The notes beneath the pieces were generated by a model. It searched no databases. It saw only the letters and a program-made list of their open reading frames with translations, and had not been told where the DNA came from. This document shows, piece by piece, positions 1 through 6,639 of a DNA stretch of 64,000 bases; within the stretch, counting starts at the first letter, position 1, and the number at the start of each line of letters is the position of its first letter. Location of the stretch: the NCBI RefSeq assembly GCF_001787335.1, contig NZ_CP014674.1, positions 2,522,501 to 2,586,500 on the forward strand, read 5' to 3'. The position numbers and the translations under genes were made by a program. Source of the DNA: Kozakia baliensis. GTDB taxonomy: Bacteria > Pseudomonadota > Alphaproteobacteria > Acetobacterales > Acetobacteraceae.

Positions 1-1040
1 GGCGCTTCCGTCGTCGGAATAAAACGCACACCCAGCAACTCAATCACCTGCCCAGAACGATATTCTTCGGAGCCATACGCACCACGATACAAATATTTGA
101 AATCCGCATCGCGAAACAATGAAAGAAGCTGCAAATCATCCAGATAGCAATGATACGCACCATCGATCATCGGCACATTGTTCCGTCGCAGCGCAGCAAC
201 GCCCGCCAGCACATTCTGTATCCCCAGCGTATCCGCCAGACCGGACGGACTCGCCGTCTTAAGCGCCGCCGTCGTCAATCGTCCATTCGGCCTGAGCACC
301 AACGGCGCCGTCGCCGCTACAACGGCATTCCCCGCCGTACCATCGGAAACCGATACCGCACTGGAAAACACCAACTGTCCCGAAACGCCACCCGGCGCGG
401 TCGAAACATTCGCAGCGTCGGCCATAACACCCACGAGAGTATACACGCCATCGCCTACCGTCGCCGTCATGCCATTGCTCGCGCCGACCGAGACCACCTG
501 CCCATTTTCAATAACATTCTGAAAACCCCGAATATCATCGACATGAACGTTATTCCCTGCCGCATCGAGAGTCACGGAAACGCGCGTATTTCCACCCAGA
601 TAACCGCCCACGCCATTCGCCGCCCCCCCGAAAAGCGTATTACGCGCCAGCCGATCAAGCGATTGCATCGCCTGCACGCCATTCGTGTTGGCATTCGCCA
701 AAAACTGCGACGCAATCCCCACGCCAGACGTCACCATATTCAAATCGATCGTGTCGCCATACTGATGGATCGAAAGCGTATATTGCTCCACCGACCAACC
801 GCTTGGCGAAAGCCCGTTATCGAAATTCGTATTTCCCGTCGGCAACATCGGCGTCGTGACAGGCGCTTTCAAACTTTTGCGCGTTTTGGTCAGCGTCTCA
901 CCGATCGCATTCGGAAAAACCTCCCGATCCGCCACTTGGCGAAAACCCAACCGCGAACGCAGTCCGTTCTCAAATTCGCGCGCCAAAAAGCCCTGCTGCA
1001 CAGCCGATTGAAGCTGCACAGGGAAATTCTCAATACCCAT
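1..1040 (-). CDS. Phage major capsid protein (3' end outside window)
   Basis: Reading leftward from an ATG at 1040 there is an open frame of at least 346 codons that runs off the window edge. It begins MGIENFPVQLQSAVQQGFLA and contains an N-terminal arm, a central beta-rich, Gly/Val/Thr-rich stretch and a late segment YLYRGAYGSEEYRSGQVIEL followed by LLGVRFIPTTEA. This composition and the ending fit the HK97-fold major capsid proteins of tailed phages (P22/N4-gp56-like coat groups), which form the prohead shell. Family assignment is inferred from composition and from position: it is the last visible gene in the order TerS, TerL, portal, scaffold, capsid. The gene lies 72 bp downstream of the scaffold gene on the same strand. 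The missing C-terminus prevents a length check. Confidence 0.72.
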   Translation of the reverse strand, partial: MGIENFPVQLQSAVQQGFLAREFENGLRSRLGFRQVADREVFPNAIGETLTKTRKSLKAPVTTPMLPTGNTNFDNGLSPSGWSVEQYTLSIHQYGDTIDLNMVTSGVGIASQFLANANTNGVQAMQSLDRLARNTLFGGAANGVGGYLGGNTRVSVTLDAAGNNVHVDDIRGFQNVIENGQVVSVGASNGMTATVGDGVYTLVGVMADAANVSTAPGGVSGQLVFSSAVSVSDGTAGNAVVAATAPLVLRPNGRLTTAALKTASPSGLADTLGIQNVLAGVAALRRNNVPMIDGAYHCYLDDLQLLSLFRDADFKYLYRGAYGSEEYRSGQVIELLGVRFIPTTEA

Positions 1041-1112
1041 TAAAATTCATTCCGATCAAACTGGAAAAATCGTTCAAATTCGCGAACGCTAAAAAATCTC
1101 TCGATCCAGACT

Positions 1113-1547
1113 TCAACGCCCGGAAAGCAACTGCCATTTACGCGCATTATAATCCGCCTCCGTCGCCTTCCTCGCGTCGAAAGCTTCCGGCACCCCAGGG
1201 CGCGGCACGGAACGCACCAACGTCGTGCCGCTCGAAACACCCGATACACTTTCCAAGGCGAACAAATACCCGCGCTCTTTTTTCAAGCGTTCGATAGCCG
1301 CCGCCGCCCCAGCAATACGCCCTTCCTCATCGCGCACTACCTCGCCCCGATCCATCAGCTTTACCGCATCTTCCGGATGATGCGCTCCTGCACGCATGGC
1401 CTCCGCGCGCAATTCCGCTTCAATCAATGCCGCATCAGTCTCTTTTCGAACCCTCAGCAAATCTGCCGCATGATTTTCCCTCAGCGCCGCCATCTCCACT
1501 TGAGCCGCTTCCAAGGATTGACGCAAACTCTCAATATCGTCCGTCAT
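1113..1547 (-). CDS. Phage scaffolding protein
   Basis: A 144-residue, highly charged protein whose first ~65 residues (SLRQSLEAAQVEMAALRENH onward) form a long coiled-coil-like helix rich in Ala, Glu, Leu and Arg. This is typical of capsid assembly scaffolds, which line the inside of the prohead and are expelled before DNA fills the head. Its ATG shares one base with the portal stop codon (TAATG arrangement), so the two are probably translationally coupled. The capsid gene follows. No sequence signature is strong enough to name the subfamily; the call rests on helix content, size and the portal-scaffold-capsid order. Confidence 0.68.
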   Translation of the reverse strand: MTDDIESLRQSLEAAQVEMAALRENHAADLLRVRKETDAALIEAELRAEAMRAGAHHPEDAVKLMDRGEVVRDEEGRIAGAAAAIERLKKERGYLFALESVSGVSSGTTLVRSVPRPGVPEAFDARKATEADYNARKWQLLSGR

Positions 1548-2977
1548 TATTTCTCCAATTCGACGTCATCAATCGGCATTGCCGCAATCCGCGACCATTC
1601 CGCGGCAGGATCGATGTTACCCGTTGCATTGGCGTAAAGGCGCACAGCCGTCTCCCGGCTGACGATCCCACCACGCCACGCCGTCACCAACCCCTGCGCC
1701 AAGGAAAGCAATTCCGGTTCACTCACCGGGAACCAAGGCGGCCAATGCAAAGCCAACCCCGCCGGGTCCAATCCCCGAACCATCTCTCCGTTCAGGCACA
1801 AGCCATTTTCCAAACCCGCGGAGAACGCACACGCCATACGATAAAGCGGCAGCAACCCACCCGCGCCATAAGAGTGACGCAACCGATCCACCAACCAAAT
1901 CAGCGGTTGGCACATCATCTCCATCGCACGCCCCGACTGCGCCGAGGAAATCCGATCCCCATGCGCACGATTGCCATGTAGCTGTTCCAGAATAAGCTGC
2001 CGCAACTCGCGGTAATGCGCCAAAACCGCACCCGCCGCGTTCCCGTTGATCTCCAAAAGCTTCGCATCGCCCTCAGGCGGCAAAGTCAACGCCGAAGCCG
2101 CCCCACCCTGGCGTGCATTGCCTTCGGAAAAACCATTCGTTTTCAACACCAATGTCGGGTCAGAGCCGTATTTCAAGCCCCGCCCCGCTTGAGACAACAA
2201 ATAATCCGCTTCGATCACCGTATCGATTGCACGCTCGAACGTACATTCCCCATCCGGATCGTCACCCTGCGCACTCGCCAGATTTCTGATCCAAACAATC
2301 GGCACAAAACCCAAACCATGCCGTACCGAACGCTCATCGTCCCGCGCACCAATGCCTTCGCCGCCCACCGGCAACGGGGAAAAAACCGCGCAATCATTTC
2401 GCGTCCAAACGCGCCGCCACCAAAATTGCGCCCCAAGCAAATCGTCAGCAATCGCATATCCTTGCGCCGCCAAATCCCGCCCGGAAACAACATACCGCTC
2501 GACAACCTCCCTCAACTCGCCATCCCGCTCATCCCATCGCGGCGTCAAATAAGCCGTATCCAGAATGGAGAGCCGCGGTTGCCCTTCGGAAACCTCGAAT
2601 AAAATCGCCACCGACCCGACAGAACCGCGAACAGCCGCCTCCGTCATCAGTGCGGGTAACCCTAACTCCTGCGTCAACACACTCAGTGCCGCGCTTGTCG
2701 CCACATCCCGCGCCACAACCGCAGGCCAATGCGTATCGCCGAATAATAACGATGCCGCCTCATCCACTACGGTTCGGCACAAATTCGTCCGCACGGAAGG
2801 GCGACGCTGCGCCAAGGGAATATACTCGCCCGAAGCAGAACGCTCCCGCGCGAAAGGATTCGGCAGAACATCATATTGCGTGCCCGCCAAAACACGCCCC
2901 AGCGCCAATAACCGCCCTGCACGCGCCGGCAAACCCGCAGGCGACACATAACGTTGCCGCAAGCACAGCCAGTCCAT
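1547..2977 (-). CDS. Phage portal protein (SPP1 gp6-like)
   Basis: 476 residues from the ATG at 2977, which has GGAG five bases upstream. A TTG six codons further upstream is open but poorly placed. The portal is the dodecameric ring at the capsid vertex through which DNA enters and leaves. The segment RTNLCRTVVDEAASLLFGD near the N-terminus, a central region with acidic and aromatic residues, and the helical stretch RELRQLILEQLHGNRAHG fit portal proteins of the SPP1/gp6 type. It lies between the large terminase (34 bp upstream) and the scaffold gene (1-base overlap), which is the canonical place for a portal gene. Confidence 0.75.
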   Translation of the reverse strand: MDWLCLRQRYVSPAGLPARAGRLLALGRVLAGTQYDVLPNPFARERSASGEYIPLAQRRPSVRTNLCRTVVDEAASLLFGDTHWPAVVARDVATSAALSVLTQELGLPALMTEAAVRGSVGSVAILFEVSEGQPRLSILDTAYLTPRWDERDGELREVVERYVVSGRDLAAQGYAIADDLLGAQFWWRRVWTRNDCAVFSPLPVGGEGIGARDDERSVRHGLGFVPIVWIRNLASAQGDDPDGECTFERAIDTVIEADYLLSQAGRGLKYGSDPTLVLKTNGFSEGNARQGGAASALTLPPEGDAKLLEINGNAAGAVLAHYRELRQLILEQLHGNRAHGDRISSAQSGRAMEMMCQPLIWLVDRLRHSYGAGGLLPLYRMACAFSAGLENGLCLNGEMVRGLDPAGLALHWPPWFPVSEPELLSLAQGLVTAWRGGIVSRETAVRLYANATGNIDPAAEWSRIAAMPIDDVELEK

Positions 2978-3010
2978 CAAATCTCCAATTATCAAAGAAC
3001 AAACCGCGCT

Positions 3011-4333
3011 CTAGCGCGACAAGCCAATTCCCGGCACCGCCTCCCAACGCGCCATCGCAGGCACAGAAAGCATCAACTCACTCAACCCCCACACCATCGC
3101 ATCCGCCCGATCCGGAGATTTCGCACCGCGATAACCATGAACGGAAAAATGGCAAAGCTGATCCTCCAAAGCCGAAAATCGACCATGATGCGTAACCCTC
3201 CCCAAATCATAGAGCGCCGCCACCGGCTCGGCACGCGCCGCCTTGCCTCGCGCCGCATTCACCATCTTTACCGCCGCCTGTGGCCGCACGCTTCGCAACA
3301 TCGCCTCTACCAGCGCACCGCCGAAATTACGCTCGGCCACAATCCGTTCAGCTCCCCATTCGTCAAACGCCCTTAAGGCACGGTTCGCCCAGCCGACGGG
3401 ACCATCACGCACCGAACAATCATCCAACACATGCCCCACCCCAGTCCAATCAACCCCGCAGACAACAATACCAATCTCGTCCGATCGCATGTCCTCCGGC
3501 CCCGACGCCCCAGATGGATCCACCGCCACGATGATCCGTCTCATTCCGGCGGCCACGGCAGGCCGCGTTTCATGCGTCACCACCGCCGCACGCCGGAACG
3601 ATTCCAAGCGCCATAAAGCACCCTCGACAACAGTCTGAAATTCCCCCAGCAAAAAGCGCCGCCGTTCACGCTCCGGCAACGCCTCCAACTGGCTCAAATA
3701 ATCCAAACTTAAATTATTCCGGTTCGACTCCGGATTGAGAATCAACGTCGCATATAATGAACGATCTGAAATTTCCTCGCCGGATTTCGGTTCGATCCCA
3801 GCTTCAAATAACGCATAAAGCCAATGGTCCATCATCGGTGGATTGGCGTCGATATATTCCTTCGTCACCAACCCACAACGCTGCGCCAAACGCGTCAACA
3901 ACATGTTGCGTGCGCCATAACTAATCTGGCTGGCCTCATTTAAATAAATCGTGGCGAACTCAAGCCCTAAAATCTTCTCGGTTCGCTGCGCATCGTCCAA
4001 TCCCCCGAAAAAAATAGACGAACCATTCGTAAAAGAGACGATACTTTCCTGACGCTCCAACCGATAAAATACGTTCGGAAAACATAACCGCATCACTTTC
4101 GGAAACGTATCTCGCAAAATAGTCGCCTTCAGCGCCGTCAACCGATAACGAAAAACACCATGCCGGCTGCCTGGCTCCTTCAACGCCCGCACGACAAGAG
4201 CACGCAACAAAACGAACGTCTTTCCCGAGCGAGATCCACCCCGCAAAAAGATATGTCGCGCCTGTCCGCCTAAAACGCGGTTTGCACTTTGCTGGGCCTT
4301 CGTAAGTGCGAATACATTGTCATAAGGCCGCAT
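3011..4333 (-). CDS. Phage terminase large subunit (TerL)
   Basis: 440 residues. The N-terminal packaging ATPase shows a Walker A-type motif GGSRSGKTFVLLRAL near residues 32-46 and a Walker B-like segment FATIYLNEASQIS around residue 130. The C-terminal half holds acidic motifs such as IIVAVDPSG and RIVAERNFGG, expected of the RNase H-like nuclease that cuts concatemeric phage DNA. The C-terminal DRADAMVWGLSELM is typical of TerL nuclease ends. Length is usual for the family. It overlaps the end of the small terminase gene by 14 bases. The ATPase and nuclease motifs look intact, so this gene does not appear decayed. Confidence 0.9.
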   Translation of the reverse strand: MRPYDNVFALTKAQQSANRVLGGQARHIFLRGGSRSGKTFVLLRALVVRALKEPGSRHGVFRYRLTALKATILRDTFPKVMRLCFPNVFYRLERQESIVSFTNGSSIFFGGLDDAQRTEKILGLEFATIYLNEASQISYGARNMLLTRLAQRCGLVTKEYIDANPPMMDHWLYALFEAGIEPKSGEEISDRSLYATLILNPESNRNNLSLDYLSQLEALPERERRRFLLGEFQTVVEGALWRLESFRRAAVVTHETRPAVAAGMRRIIVAVDPSGASGPEDMRSDEIGIVVCGVDWTGVGHVLDDCSVRDGPVGWANRALRAFDEWGAERIVAERNFGGALVEAMLRSVRPQAAVKMVNAARGKAARAEPVAALYDLGRVTHHGRFSALEDQLCHFSVHGYRGAKSPDRADAMVWGLSELMLSVPAMARWEAVPGIGLSR

Positions 4334-4799
4334 CGTCTTGCGTTATCTGCACCGTCACCATCCCGCCATCCGTTTCGCCACAATCGCGAAAACGCGAAGG
4401 CCGATGCGCACGGAGCAACATCCGCAACAAACCATCGCTGTATCGCTTCTTAATGACCGGCTGCCCCTGCGCATCGCAAATAATCTTCCCACCATATGTT
4501 ATCAGCTCGTCATAGCCATAAAGCGCGCGCCGCCGTGCCTCCGCCTCCAAAGCATCGGTCGCCACTTCCAACGCCTCATTCCATGCAGATGCAAATTCCG
4601 GATTATTCCGCCGCCAAAAATACATCGTCGCACGTTCGACCCCAGCCACACGCGATGCTTCCGAAACATTTCCGCTCAGCGCTAAATGCTCGAGAAATCT
4701 CTCCTTCAATCGGGCTACAAGCTGTATCCGCTCATGTGCGCATCTGCCGCCTTCTTTTTTGTCGCCAGACCTCTCTGCGTCCTCCGTTTTTTCCGTCAC
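4320..4799 (-). CDS. Phage terminase small subunit-like protein (TerS)
   Basis: 159 residues. After a charged N-terminus there is a helix-turn-helix-like stretch, FLEHLALSGNVSEASRVAGV then ERATMYFWRRNN, followed by FASAWNEALEVATDALEAEA, a pattern common in small terminase subunits that recognise the packaging site. The C-terminal half contains KKRYSDGLLRMLLRAHRPSR, often seen in small terminase or DNA-packaging proteins of temperate phages. The gene overlaps TerL by 14 bases and is overlapped by 4 bases by the preceding gene (ATGA junction), so the whole block reads as one transcript. Confidence 0.75.
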   Translation of the reverse strand: MTEKTEDAERSGDKKEGGRCAHERIQLVARLKERFLEHLALSGNVSEASRVAGVERATMYFWRRNNPEFASAWNEALEVATDALEAEARRRALYGYDELITYGGKIICDAQGQPVIKKRYSDGLLRMLLRAHRPSRFRDCGETDGGMVTVQITQDDAAL

Positions 4800-5197
4800 A
4801 ATACTGCCCGTTCACCGTATTTTTCTTGCCGAACCGAACTTCCTGAAACCACTCTCATTTTTACAGATGAAAAATTACGGTCGCGTTGTGCATATTCCCG
4901 AAAAAGCGCATCCCGCGCACGTCTCACCACGGAAGATCCAACCGTCCCTACAAACCGAACGCCTCTTTCTCCCTCTCGGCAACAAGCTACGGCCCTCAAC
5001 CGCACATCCGGAACCGACAAACCGGCCTCACTCAATTCTATCCAATTTAAATCGATATCCGAGCGGTGCCGCGCCTCATGACCTGCCACAAGCGGACAAG
5101 CCACCCACCGCGCGCCAGATTTTTCGACAACCACCAGATGCTGCCACCCTAAAAAAACAACATCGCCCTCGCGAATATTTTTCCCCGACGCCGACAT
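4796..5197 (-). CDS. Small phage-operon protein, MazF/PemK-like fold suspected
   Basis: 133 residues. The start ATG at 5197 has GAGGTG upstream. Residues 9-95 follow the strand order of the MazF/PemK SH3-like barrel: REGDVVFLGWQHLVVVEK, then WVACPLVAG, then RAVACCREGERGVRFVGTVG, then a C-terminal helix RARDALFREYAQR. The residues usually conserved in active MazF (an Arg in the first loop before the second strand) are not evident, so catalytic activity is doubtful. It is the first gene of the packaging operon, joined to TerS by a 4-base overlap, and no antitoxin-like partner is visible. The fold call is my reading of the pattern; an unrelated small structural or regulatory phage protein is the alternative. 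Confidence 0.45.
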   Translation of the reverse strand: MSASGKNIREGDVVFLGWQHLVVVEKSGARWVACPLVAGHEARHRSDIDLNWIELSEAGLSVPDVRLRAVACCREGERGVRFVGTVGSSVVRRARDALFREYAQRDRNFSSVKMRVVSGSSVRQEKYGERAVL

Positions 5198-5212
5198 CGC
5201 TACACCTCAAAT

Positions 5213-5238
5213 AAAAAAAGCCACCCGAAGGCGGCTTT
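5213..5238 (-). terminator. Intrinsic terminator ahead of the packaging operon
   Basis: Read on the minus strand, AAAGCCGCC-TTCG-GGTGGCTTT forms a stem closed by a UUCG tetraloop (one G-U pair) and is followed directly by a run of seven Ts. It lies downstream of the 166-residue gene (5298-5798) and ends only about 15 bases before the start codon of the first packaging-operon gene at 5197. Confidence 0.85.
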
Positions 5239-5297
5239 AAATATAATTATTTGTTCATGATATGATTTGTATTACATAAACGAGCCCAGAGCGCAAG

Positions 5298-5798
5298 TTA
5301 TATTTTCTTTTTTCTATAAAAATTTACCAATTGCTCAAGAAGAAAAGAACATTGCGCCGAAACCTTCATGCGCGCACGCGCTTCGGACAAACTCGGATAA
5401 AGAAGCCGCGCCATCGCGGAAAAAGACATCTCTCGTGCCAACATCATTTCCAGACGAACCTGTGCCCCAAGCCCCAATGTGTCCTTCAATCGGCTCAAAC
5501 GCTCCGCACATTTTCCACGGCTCAACATCCAAGTATGCACGTCCCCCTTTTCATCGGTCACACCCACCCGAACCGGACCATCCACCACCCCCAACGTGGC
5601 AAACAAATGTTCCCGCCGCCACCGCTCCGCCGCTGCCTTTTCATCGTCTCCAATATCCTGCGCATCATAAAGAGCCTGCACCGTTGAAACCACACGAAGA
5701 GCATCGCCCTCATTTTGGAAATTATCTCGCCGCAAACGTTCGGGCGTCGGGCGCATCTCCGCGAATTTGTCCGTCGTTTTCGTTATCCGTGCGCTCAT
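5298..5798 (-). CDS. Phage regulatory protein of unknown family (antiterminator or late activator suspected)
   Basis: 166 residues, largely helical and basic at the C-terminus (ending VNFYRKKKI), with GAGG properly spaced before the ATG at 5798. The C-terminal part LGAQVRLEMMLAREMSFSAM followed by ARLLYPSLSEARARMKVS resembles a sigma-region-4 or HTH-like DNA-binding module. I do not recognise the family with certainty; there is a faint likeness to the alphaproteobacterial DUF6456 layout. The placement is suggestive: it is followed by a 59-bp AT-rich gap, an intrinsic terminator, and then the packaging operon, which is where lambdoid phages put the Q-type antiterminator. Function is inferred from context only. 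Confidence 0.55.
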   Translation of the reverse strand: MSARITKTTDKFAEMRPTPERLRRDNFQNEGDALRVVSTVQALYDAQDIGDDEKAAAERWRREHLFATLGVVDGPVRVGVTDEKGDVHTWMLSRGKCAERLSRLKDTLGLGAQVRLEMMLAREMSFSAMARLLYPSLSEARARMKVSAQCSFLLEQLVNFYRKKKI

Positions 5799-5847
5799 GG
5801 GTGCCTCGCTATCCTATCTATTCACAAACAAACCTTTGAAGGTGCCT

Positions 5848-6141
5848 TCACTCTGACGGCTGCTTTTCACGCAGAGAGTCCTTGTCGCGTACCATTCCCG
5901 GCTCCCATGCGCCTATCGATCTCAATCCGGGAAAGCGCGGCGTTGCGTCCGCCGGCCACAGAGCCGCCCAGCTACTCGGATGCCCCGAAGGCAATGCCTC
6001 GCTTCCCGCCTGGTCACGTTCACGTAATCTGTTGGTCCGGCGTTTTCCCTGCGGAATCCAGGCCGTCTGCGCCAACAACTCCACCAATCGCTCCGCAGGC
6101 ACGGCTTTGCTGTATTTTTTCGAACCAACCGGCTTGCTCAT
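5848..6141 (-). CDS. Hypothetical phage early protein, 97 aa
   Basis: The ATG at 6141 is preceded on the minus strand by AAGGAGAGGA at good distance, a strong ribosome-binding site that supports a real gene. The protein starts MSKPVGSKKYSKAVPAERLV and has a short amphipathic helix (AERLVELLAQTAW), then a Trp/Pro-rich middle and a charged tail. No known domain is recognised. It is the first gene leftward of the putative repressor-operator region, so it would be the first product made from the leftward lytic promoter. A Cro-like or replication-accessory role is possible, but the sequence does not show it. Confidence 0.55.
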   Translation of the reverse strand: MSKPVGSKKYSKAVPAERLVELLAQTAWIPQGKRRTNRLRERDQAGSEALPSGHPSSWAALWPADATPRFPGLRSIGAWEPGMVRDKDSLREKQPSE

Positions 6142-6246: not shown

Positions 6247-6639
6247 ATGGCCAAACACAAGCGCCCAGACTCCCTCGCCGCTCTTCAGTGCGCTATCGGC
6301 ATGCGCATCTCATGGGCAAGAGAACTCGTCATGCCCAATCAAAGCGAATGCGCCCGGCTGCTCGGTGTGGACGCCTCCACCCTCAATAAAATCGAAAAAG
6401 GCGACCGCGCGCCGAACGTCTTTCTTATTGCGGCTTTGTCAAATCGCCTCCGCGTCTCGACCGACTTTCTTCTGAAAGGCGTTTTGAACGGTCGAACAGA
6501 TGAAGAGCTTGCCTTGCGTCTAGCGGCCCTACACCCAGAGTTGGTGCTCCAGCAGCAAGACACGGTGCCGCACATGGGCAAAAGCACGCCTTCCGACACG
6601 CCTGCGTCGCCCAGGAGACCAGGTGAGGATTTCCATTAA
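6247..6639 (+). CDS. XRE-family prophage repressor
   Basis: 130 residues. A Cro/CI-type helix-turn-helix spans roughly residues 30-80: MPNQSECARLLGVDASTLNK, IEKGDRAPN, and LIAALSNRLRVSTDFLLKG. The C-terminal ~45 residues are Pro/Ser/Thr-rich and carry no peptidase S24 domain, so this is a short repressor that would not be cleaved in the LexA/CI manner. It is transcribed divergently from the phage genes, and two matching palindromes lie just upstream (6175-6231). No clear Shine-Dalgarno precedes the ATG at 6247; the mRNA may be leaderless or the transcript start very close. It probably keeps the leftward phage operon silent. Confidence 0.8.
   Translation: MAKHKRPDSLAALQCAIGMRISWARELVMPNQSECARLLGVDASTLNKIEKGDRAPNVFLIAALSNRLRVSTDFLLKGVLNGRTDEELALRLAALHPELVLQQQDTVPHMGKSTPSDTPASPRRPGEDFH

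What the first reader, a model, noticed from the sequence alone, without database searches (positions are those of the whole stretch)
5197..5798. Packaging operon gated by a terminator: lambda Q-like late switch with unknown regulator
A strong UUCG-loop terminator (5213-5238) ends only 15 bases before the first gene of the packaging operon, leaving no room for a promoter between them. Just upstream are a 59-bp AT-rich gap and a 166-aa protein gene of unknown family. This matches the logic of lambda Q (regulator gene, late promoter, terminator, late genes). If so, the 166-aa protein would be a new antiterminator family.
Basis: inference. Interest (0 to 1): 0.6.

Follow-up and report, generated by a model that had tools for sequence, protein, structure and literature searches.

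The report
Q-like antitermination switch of domesticated phage
A small protein of unknown function, encoded just before a promoter and a terminator that block a phage head-and-tail operon in vinegar bacteria, looks like the antiterminator that lets RNA polymerase through, so this is very probably a lambda-Q-style on/off switch, here controlling a phage gene cluster that the bacteria appear to have domesticated.

Summary
In detail: an intrinsic terminator (hairpin 5238-5217, minus strand, UUCG loop, U-run) ends 15 nt before the first packaging-operon gene, behind a 59-bp gap and a 166-aa gene (p166, PHROG 16492, function unknown). (1) A promoter lies in the gap upstream of the hairpin: a composite model trained on relatives only (-35, spacer motif, -10, 5-6 nt, -10-like hexamer) has its best hit in the 64-kb window exactly there, and recurs at p<=0.02 in 35 of 36 non-redundant element copies and about 10 of 33 distant prophage homologues. 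Its parts sit where lambda/21 late promoters carry the Q-binding and sigma-pause elements. (2) The hairpin is kept in 25 of 36 copies with compensatory change. (3) The predicted p166 fold matches phage 21 Q best (Z 8.6-9.3). (4) p166 is remotely homologous to DUF6456/GafZ, a demonstrated antiterminator. Against: 11 of 36 copies lack the hairpin yet keep p166; nothing is tested experimentally. The operon belongs to a ~19-kb phage-derived cluster at one chromosomal site in at least six acetic-acid-bacterial genera, under purifying selection: domesticated, GTA-like.

The parts
5298..5798 (-). p166: proposed late antiterminator (166 aa, PHROG 16492); long helix 51-69, flexible segment 70-86, sigma-region-4-like domain 87-165 with HTH about 123-150
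   Evidence: ORF; PHROG; AF2 model pLDDT 84; Q21 best structural match; DUF6456 profile match; dN/dS 0.01-0.04 in close pairs
5291..5296 (-). -35 element TTGCGC
   Evidence: composite promoter model, best hit of both strands of the window (12.8; next 8.0), window not in training
5275..5290 (-). 16-17 bp promoter spacer with motif TCTGGGCTCG, proposed loading site of p166 (QBE-like)
   Evidence: conserved G/C-rich spacer motif in hairpin-bearing copies
5269..5274 (-). -10 element TAATAC (or AATACA 5268-5273 with 17-bp spacing)
5257..5262 (-). -10-like hexamer TATCAT at about +1 to +6, proposed sigma-dependent pause element, followed by GAAC
   Evidence: hexamer with A at position 2 and T at position 6, 5-6 nt after the -10, in nearly all copies
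5217..5238 (-). terminator hairpin, 9 pairs, TTCG loop
   Evidence: position conserved and stem covarying in relatives
5209..5216 (-). U-rich tail TTTTATTT of the terminator
   Evidence: sequence
5205..5208 (-). Shine-Dalgarno-like GAGG for the 133-aa gene
   Evidence: sequence; inference
4796..5197 (-). p133, first gene of the late operon (PHROG 27245, unknown function)
   Evidence: present in copies and in distant prophages
4320..4799 (-). terminase small subunit
   Evidence: PHROG 4044 E 1e-35
3011..4333 (-). terminase large subunit
   Evidence: Pfam/PHROG
1547..2995 (-). portal protein
   Evidence: PF05133, PHROG 145
1113..1547 (-). head scaffolding protein
   Evidence: PF06810 E 2.5e-12
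1..1040 (-). 459-aa gene running off the window's left edge, presumed major capsid
   Evidence: gene; function is inference from position
5848..6141 (-). p97, small conserved gene upstream of p166, function unknown
   Evidence: conserved in most copies
6247..6639 (+). divergent HTH (Cro/CI-type) regulator, about 75-88% identical in the syntenic copies; candidate repressor of the p97-p166 operon
   Evidence: HTH_3 E 9.5e-10; conservation; role is inference

Best explanation
p166 is a Q-type processive antiterminator that switches on the packaging/head/tail operon. RNA polymerase starts at the late promoter (5296-5269, minus strand) but stops at the hairpin, about 25-50 nt into the transcript. 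When p166 is made from the upstream operon it binds the promoter-spacer motif, loads onto polymerase held by sigma at the -10-like element (5262-5257) and remodels the RNA exit channel, so that polymerase reads through this terminator and later ones and transcribes the ~19-kb late operon. Shown here: anatomy, conservation, covariation, predicted fold, remote homology. Inferred: start site, pause, binding, antitermination.
For: Layout confirmed. The conserved composite promoter lies upstream of the hairpin: with near relatives left out of training, none of 100 shuffles reached the real score in 34 of 36 copies, and the site is the best hit on both strands of the window. A Q-binding element between -35 and -10 plus a -10-like sequence in the initially transcribed region are the cis elements Q needs (PMC6606751), and both positions are occupied by conserved sequence here. 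Hairpins covary, 25 of 36 copies. p166 model: the five best PDB matches by VIA-align are all phage 21 Q (Z 9.3-7.7, 93-107 residues); the sigma chains below align mostly over about 70-85 residues. p166 vs DUF6456 profile: 83.5% probability, score 40 against at most 16 for permuted controls and 22 for other families; BFVD also returns DUF6456 phage proteins. GafZ, of that family, is a shown antiterminator with its site between -35 and -10 (PMC11150451; PMC9632790). Spacer variation tracks the sigma4-like domain of p166 and not its N-terminal half. A p166-like gene followed closely by a hairpin with U-run recurs in loci with 30-49% identical homologues: L054, L062, L066, L068, L071, L072, L090.
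Against: 11 of 36 syntenic copies (Asaia/Swaminathania clade, Brytella) have no hairpin there, yet all but one keep an apparently intact p166, so this hairpin cannot be p166's only target. About two thirds of the distant homologues lack a recognisable composite promoter or terminator. Foldseek alone gives no significant PDB match (best E 0.43), and Z 8-9 for a helical protein can be a common arrangement. No sequence match to PF06530 (hhalign 2-4%). The spacer-HTH correlation comes mainly from one clade split (hairpin-bearing copies only: partial r 0.16, p 0.10). No transcript data.
Confidence: 0.77

Rival explanations
1. p166 is a sigma-like or DNA-binding transcription activator of the late promoter (as GafA was first described), and the hairpin merely reduces leak or ends the upstream operon.
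For: The C-terminal domain is sigma-region-4-like; GafA, the fused relative, is described as an activator that interacts with the RNAP omega subunit (PMC9638019); hairpin-less copies keep p166; the -35 elements are often imperfect.
Against: Activation alone explains neither the conserved -10-like element at the start of the transcript nor a conserved terminator between promoter and operon; the best structural match over the longest aligned length is an antiterminator, not a sigma factor; GafZ, the closest tested relative, reads through terminators.
Confidence: 0.13
2. Attenuation or riboswitch-like control: the leader RNA switches between terminator and antiterminator structures, independent of p166.
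For: A terminator close to a start codon is typical of attenuators; sub-threshold Rfam match to Phe_leader (29.4 bits against a 55-bit cut-off).
Against: The leader before the hairpin is only about 25 nt and AU-rich, with no segment complementary to the GC arm (sequence); no Rfam family passes its threshold; leader sequence is not conserved beyond the promoter/pause block.
Confidence: 0.04
3. The hairpin is just the terminator of the p97-p166 operon and the late genes are transcribed from elsewhere or by leaky read-through; the promoter-like conservation reflects something else.
For: Every operon needs an end; the hairpin directly follows p166.
Against: There is no room for a promoter after the hairpin (15 nt); the conserved promoter sits before it in the element copies; an end-of-operon terminator would not need a promoter and a -10-like element in fixed register in front of it.
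Confidence: 0.06

Closest known systems
Phage 21 Q (Q21) and its late promoter PR' with terminator tR'
   Same: Late promoter followed by terminator; conserved element in the -35/-10 spacer; -10-like hexamer at the start of the transcript; best structural match of the p166 model; both have an N-terminal helix, a flexible segment and a sigma-R4-like domain.
   Different: No detectable sequence similarity (PF06530 hhalign 2-4%); the spacer motif is not the TGAGCA direct repeat; the operon begins with p133 and packaging genes (in lambda, lysis genes come first; own knowledge).
GafZ / GafA C-terminal region (DUF6456, PF20057) of alphaproteobacterial gene transfer agents
   Same: Remote profile homology over 112 columns; same helix order in AF2 models; site between -35 and -10; controls a phage-derived head/tail cluster; GafZ is an antiterminator (PMC11150451).
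   Different: Below Pfam's DUF6456 cut-off; encoded directly upstream of the operon rather than at a remote locus; no GafY or IHF requirement known; terminator lies in the leader, not after the first gene; found here only in the Acetobacteraceae-level family.
AlpA of Pseudomonas aeruginosa
   Same: Promoter-embedded binding element and an intrinsic terminator downstream of the promoter (PMC9371919, PMC7969949 abstracts).
   Different: Controls a programmed cell death pathway; protein not compared by sequence here.
Lambda Q (PF03589)
   Same: Genetic logic and order of cis elements.
   Different: Different fold from 21Q apart from an HTH (PMC6606751); no Pfam match of p166.

Membership tests
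Q-type late antitermination system (by function) | Regulator gene directly upstream of the late promoter | tested here: met
   p166 ends at 5298, -35 begins at 5296; same in copies
Q-type late antitermination system (by function) | Conserved sequence element between -35 and -10 (QBE position) | tested here: met
   G/C-rich spacer motif in the 25 hairpin-bearing copies and Brytella, absent in the Asaia/Swaminathania clade; binding itself not tested
Q-type late antitermination system (by function) | -10-like sigma-pause hexamer in the initially transcribed region | tested here: met
   pausing itself not tested
Q-type late antitermination system (by function) | Intrinsic terminator between late promoter and late genes | tested here: met
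   window and 25 of 36 copies; missing in 11
Q-type late antitermination system (by function) | Protein makes RNA polymerase resistant to terminators | not testable with these tools
   needs a read-through assay
Phage_antitermQ (PF06530) | Match to the sequence profile | tested here: not met
   no Pfam hit; hhalign probability 2-4%
Phage 21 Q | Q21 fold | tested here: inconclusive
   five best VIA-align rows are Q21, Z 7.7-9.3 over 93-107 residues, but Foldseek alone not significant
DUF6456 / GafZ | Pfam PF20057 above cut-off | tested here: not met
   no hit for p166; 2 of 57 family members match weakly, best E 0.017; own genome no hit
DUF6456 / GafZ | Homology over the domain by profile comparison | tested here: met
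   83.5%, E 8e-6, score 40.3 against <=16.2 permuted and <=22 other families; same helix order; BFVD DUF6456 hits
Gene transfer agent | Head-tail cluster at a conserved chromosomal site under purifying selection, without integration or replication genes | tested here: met
   same flank (HTH, RND/MFP genes) in several genera; dN/dS mostly 0.01-0.2 in close pairs; genes seen in the cluster are structural or unassigned
Gene transfer agent | Particles package random host DNA and transfer it | not testable with these tools
   no experiment; nothing found in the papers searched

The most novel reading that the evidence does not exclude
p166, GafZ/GafA-C and phage 21 Q are branches of one superfamily of sigma-region-4-derived antiterminators that load at a sigma-paused promoter, and p166 controls an undescribed, vertically inherited, contractile-tailed gene-transfer-agent-like element of acetic acid bacteria.
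Probability: 0.3. Interest if true: 0.8.

Novelty: new variant of a known kind. Interest (0 to 1): 0.63.

Why it matters
It would give a function to a family listed only as 'unknown' (PHROG 16492) that is spread through Acetobacteraceae prophages, and link the phage 21 Q fold to the GafZ regulators of gene transfer agents, whose mechanism is open. The compact, single-protein layout (gene, promoter, pause element, terminator within about 700 bp) makes a direct in vitro test of sigma-pause loading possible outside lambdoid phages. It also flags a conserved phage-derived cluster in industrial vinegar bacteria as a candidate gene transfer agent.

Tried and rejected
Expected that copies without the hairpin would have decaying p166: rejected; stops lie only at the extreme C-terminus, and one incomplete genome (L145) is frameshifted, its portal also interrupted. 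Looked for a relocated terminator downstream in hairpin-less copies: none consistent. Profile search of PDB sequences with the family: nothing informative. Pfam for p166 and family: no informative hit. PF06530 homology: not supported. tblastn against phage records: no match. DUF6456 model against PDB: sigma region 4 best; Q21 not listed among the 257 chains compared, which is inconclusive. Leader-RNA attenuation: no Rfam family at threshold. Automatic promoter picks without the -10-like element were unreliable in AT-rich regions, hence the joint model.

Full report
CHECK OF THE OBSERVATION. The minus strand reads, from the stop of the 166-aa gene to the ATG at 5197: 59 bp of AT-rich DNA (31% G+C), hairpin AAAGCCGCC-TTCG-GGTGGCTTT (5238-5217), TTTTATTT, GAGG, ATG. 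Genes downstream are p133 (PHROG 27245), terminase small and large subunits, portal and scaffold. p166 belongs to PHROG 16492, function unknown.

CONTEXT. The window is part of a 3.5-Mb genome. The operon continues about 13 kb left of the window with sheath, baseplate and tail-fibre genes: a ~19-kb contractile-tail cluster. Close relatives of p166 occur in 33 loci of Gluconobacter, Neokomagataea, Brytella, Tanticharoenia, Asaia, Swaminathania and Ameyamaea; the block p97-p166-p133-TerS-TerL-portal-scaffold sits next to the same HTH gene and, where the locus shows them, the same RND/MFP efflux genes (Ameyamaea lacks these flanks). dN/dS is about 0.01-0.04 for p166 and mostly 0.01-0.2 for neighbours in close species pairs. 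No integrase or replication gene was seen among the called genes. This is a domesticated, vertically inherited element, formally like a gene transfer agent; transfer is not shown. More distant p166 homologues (27-49%) lie in other, prophage-like contexts, up to several per genome; 67 of 397 genomes of the family have the gene, while none was found outside the family in 289 genomes drawn from the class (its two hits are the own genome and one of the same family).

PROMOTER BEFORE THE TERMINATOR. Intergenic regions after p166 were compared. A joint model was trained on 27 relatives: -35 TTG(C/A)nn, the first 12 bases of the spacer (consensus about TnnGAnCGCGGT), -10 TATAAA, a gap of 5-6 nt, and a -10-like hexamer (CATACT, TACATT, TATATT, CATAAT ...; A at position 2, T at position 6) followed by GAA. 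Each region was scored with near relatives left out and against 100 dinucleotide shuffles. No shuffle reached the real score in 34 of 36 non-redundant element copies; one (L029) had p 0.02 and one (L077) p 0.05. It was also found, at p<=0.02, in distant loci such as L054, L057, L059, L062, L068, L069 and L086. In the 64-kb window, which was not used for training, the best hit on either strand is at 5296 (-), score 12.8 against 8.0 for the next; in seven other untrained loci the expected site is again the best, by a wide margin. With the usual 7-nt distance the transcript starts at about 5262, the hexamer lies at about +1 to +6 and the hairpin begins at about +25.

TERMINATOR CONSERVATION. 25 of 36 element copies have a hairpin with U-run between this promoter and the operon. 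Stem sequences differ widely while pairing is kept (several pair types at nearly every position), and 0 of 145 shuffled regions reached the real score. It is missing in Brytella and in the Asaia/Swaminathania clade (11 copies), which keep promoter, -10-like hexamer and, with one exception (L145), an intact p166. That clade also lacks the G/C-rich spacer motif, which Brytella keeps.

PROTEIN. AlphaFold2 with 57 family members gives pLDDT 84: a long helix (51-69), an unstructured stretch (70-86) and a four-helix C-terminal domain with HTH. VIA-align ranks five phage 21 Q chains first (Z 9.3-7.7), then mostly sigma region 4; plain Foldseek gives only weak sigma hits. Phage 21 Q is described as a sigma-R4-like fold packed against its own first helix, with a partly disordered loop in between (PMC6606751), which is the architecture seen here. 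Profile comparison finds no relation to PF06530 but a clear one to DUF6456 (83.5%, score 40.3; permuted controls at most 16.2; other families at most 22). DUF6456 is the annotation of GafA homologues (PMC9638019, PMC9765227), and GafZ corresponds to the C-terminal part of GafA (PMC9632790). A DUF6456 model has the same order of helices, and BFVD lists DUF6456 phage proteins among the matches of p166.

LINK BETWEEN PROTEIN AND SITE. Distances between spacer sequences correlate with distances in the sigma4-like domain (residues 93-164, partial r 0.40-0.57 after controlling for TerL+portal) and not with the N-terminal half. Most of this signal is the Asaia split; within hairpin-bearing copies it is weak (0.16, p 0.10). 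It is suggestive, not proof, that p166 reads the spacer.

MECHANISM. In lambdoid phages Q needs a site between -35 and -10 and a -10-like sequence in the initially transcribed region; it joins sigma-paused polymerase and makes it ignore terminators (PMC6606751). All these parts are here in register, with a protein of similar predicted fold encoded directly upstream. In Caulobacter the related GafZ binds a palindrome in the same promoter position and enables read-through of a terminator in the GTA cluster (PMC11150451). Most likely p166 works the same way: off state, short terminated leader RNA; on state, p166-modified polymerase through the late operon. In hairpin-less species p166 may act on later terminators or on processivity; this is inference.

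WHAT IS NOT SHOWN. Start site, pause, binding and antitermination are untested. The roles of the divergent HTH gene and of p97 are unknown. The GTA-like nature rests on synteny, selection and gene content only.

Noticed in passing
window 1-6141 plus L051:6774-20000 (left of the window): The late operon is part of a ~19-kb contractile-tail phage-derived cluster found at the same chromosomal site beside an RND efflux operon in several acetic-acid-bacterial genera, with strong purifying selection: a candidate undescribed gene transfer agent.
   Followed up: partly
window 6247-6639 (+): Divergent HTH (Cro/CI-type) gene, about 75-88% identical between genera, more conserved than the phage genes; may be the host-side repressor of the element.
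   Followed up: partly
window 5848-6141 (-): p97, a small protein without any family match, conserved between the HTH gene and p166 in most copies; function unknown.
   Followed up: no
L051:14389-15306: About 0.8-0.9 kb between the tail-tube side and the 303-aa gene has no convincing reading frame where a tape-measure gene would be expected; may be a broken gene in this genome.
   Followed up: no
L026, L027, L030, L047, L048: Additional p166 homologues (57-65% identical) with a different N-terminus and no recognisable packaging genes next to them.
   Followed up: no
L002, L029, L031, L032, L077, L080, L139-L142, L145: Copies that lost the leader hairpin and (except Brytella L002) the G/C-rich promoter spacer motif but keep the -10-like hexamer and p166: a natural experiment on what p166 acts on.
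   Followed up: partly
L068, L069, L086 promoter spacers: Distant prophage homologues carry near-perfect palindromes (GGACCCGGGTC, TGGACCCGGTCCA, CTGGATCCAG) in the promoter spacer, reminiscent of the GafZ binding element.
   Followed up: no
L053, L055: Two homologues have the 'CACTGAAGAATT' start followed by a hairpin (TTGCGC-CTGTA-GCGCAA) without a U-run, perhaps a pause rather than a terminator.
   Followed up: no
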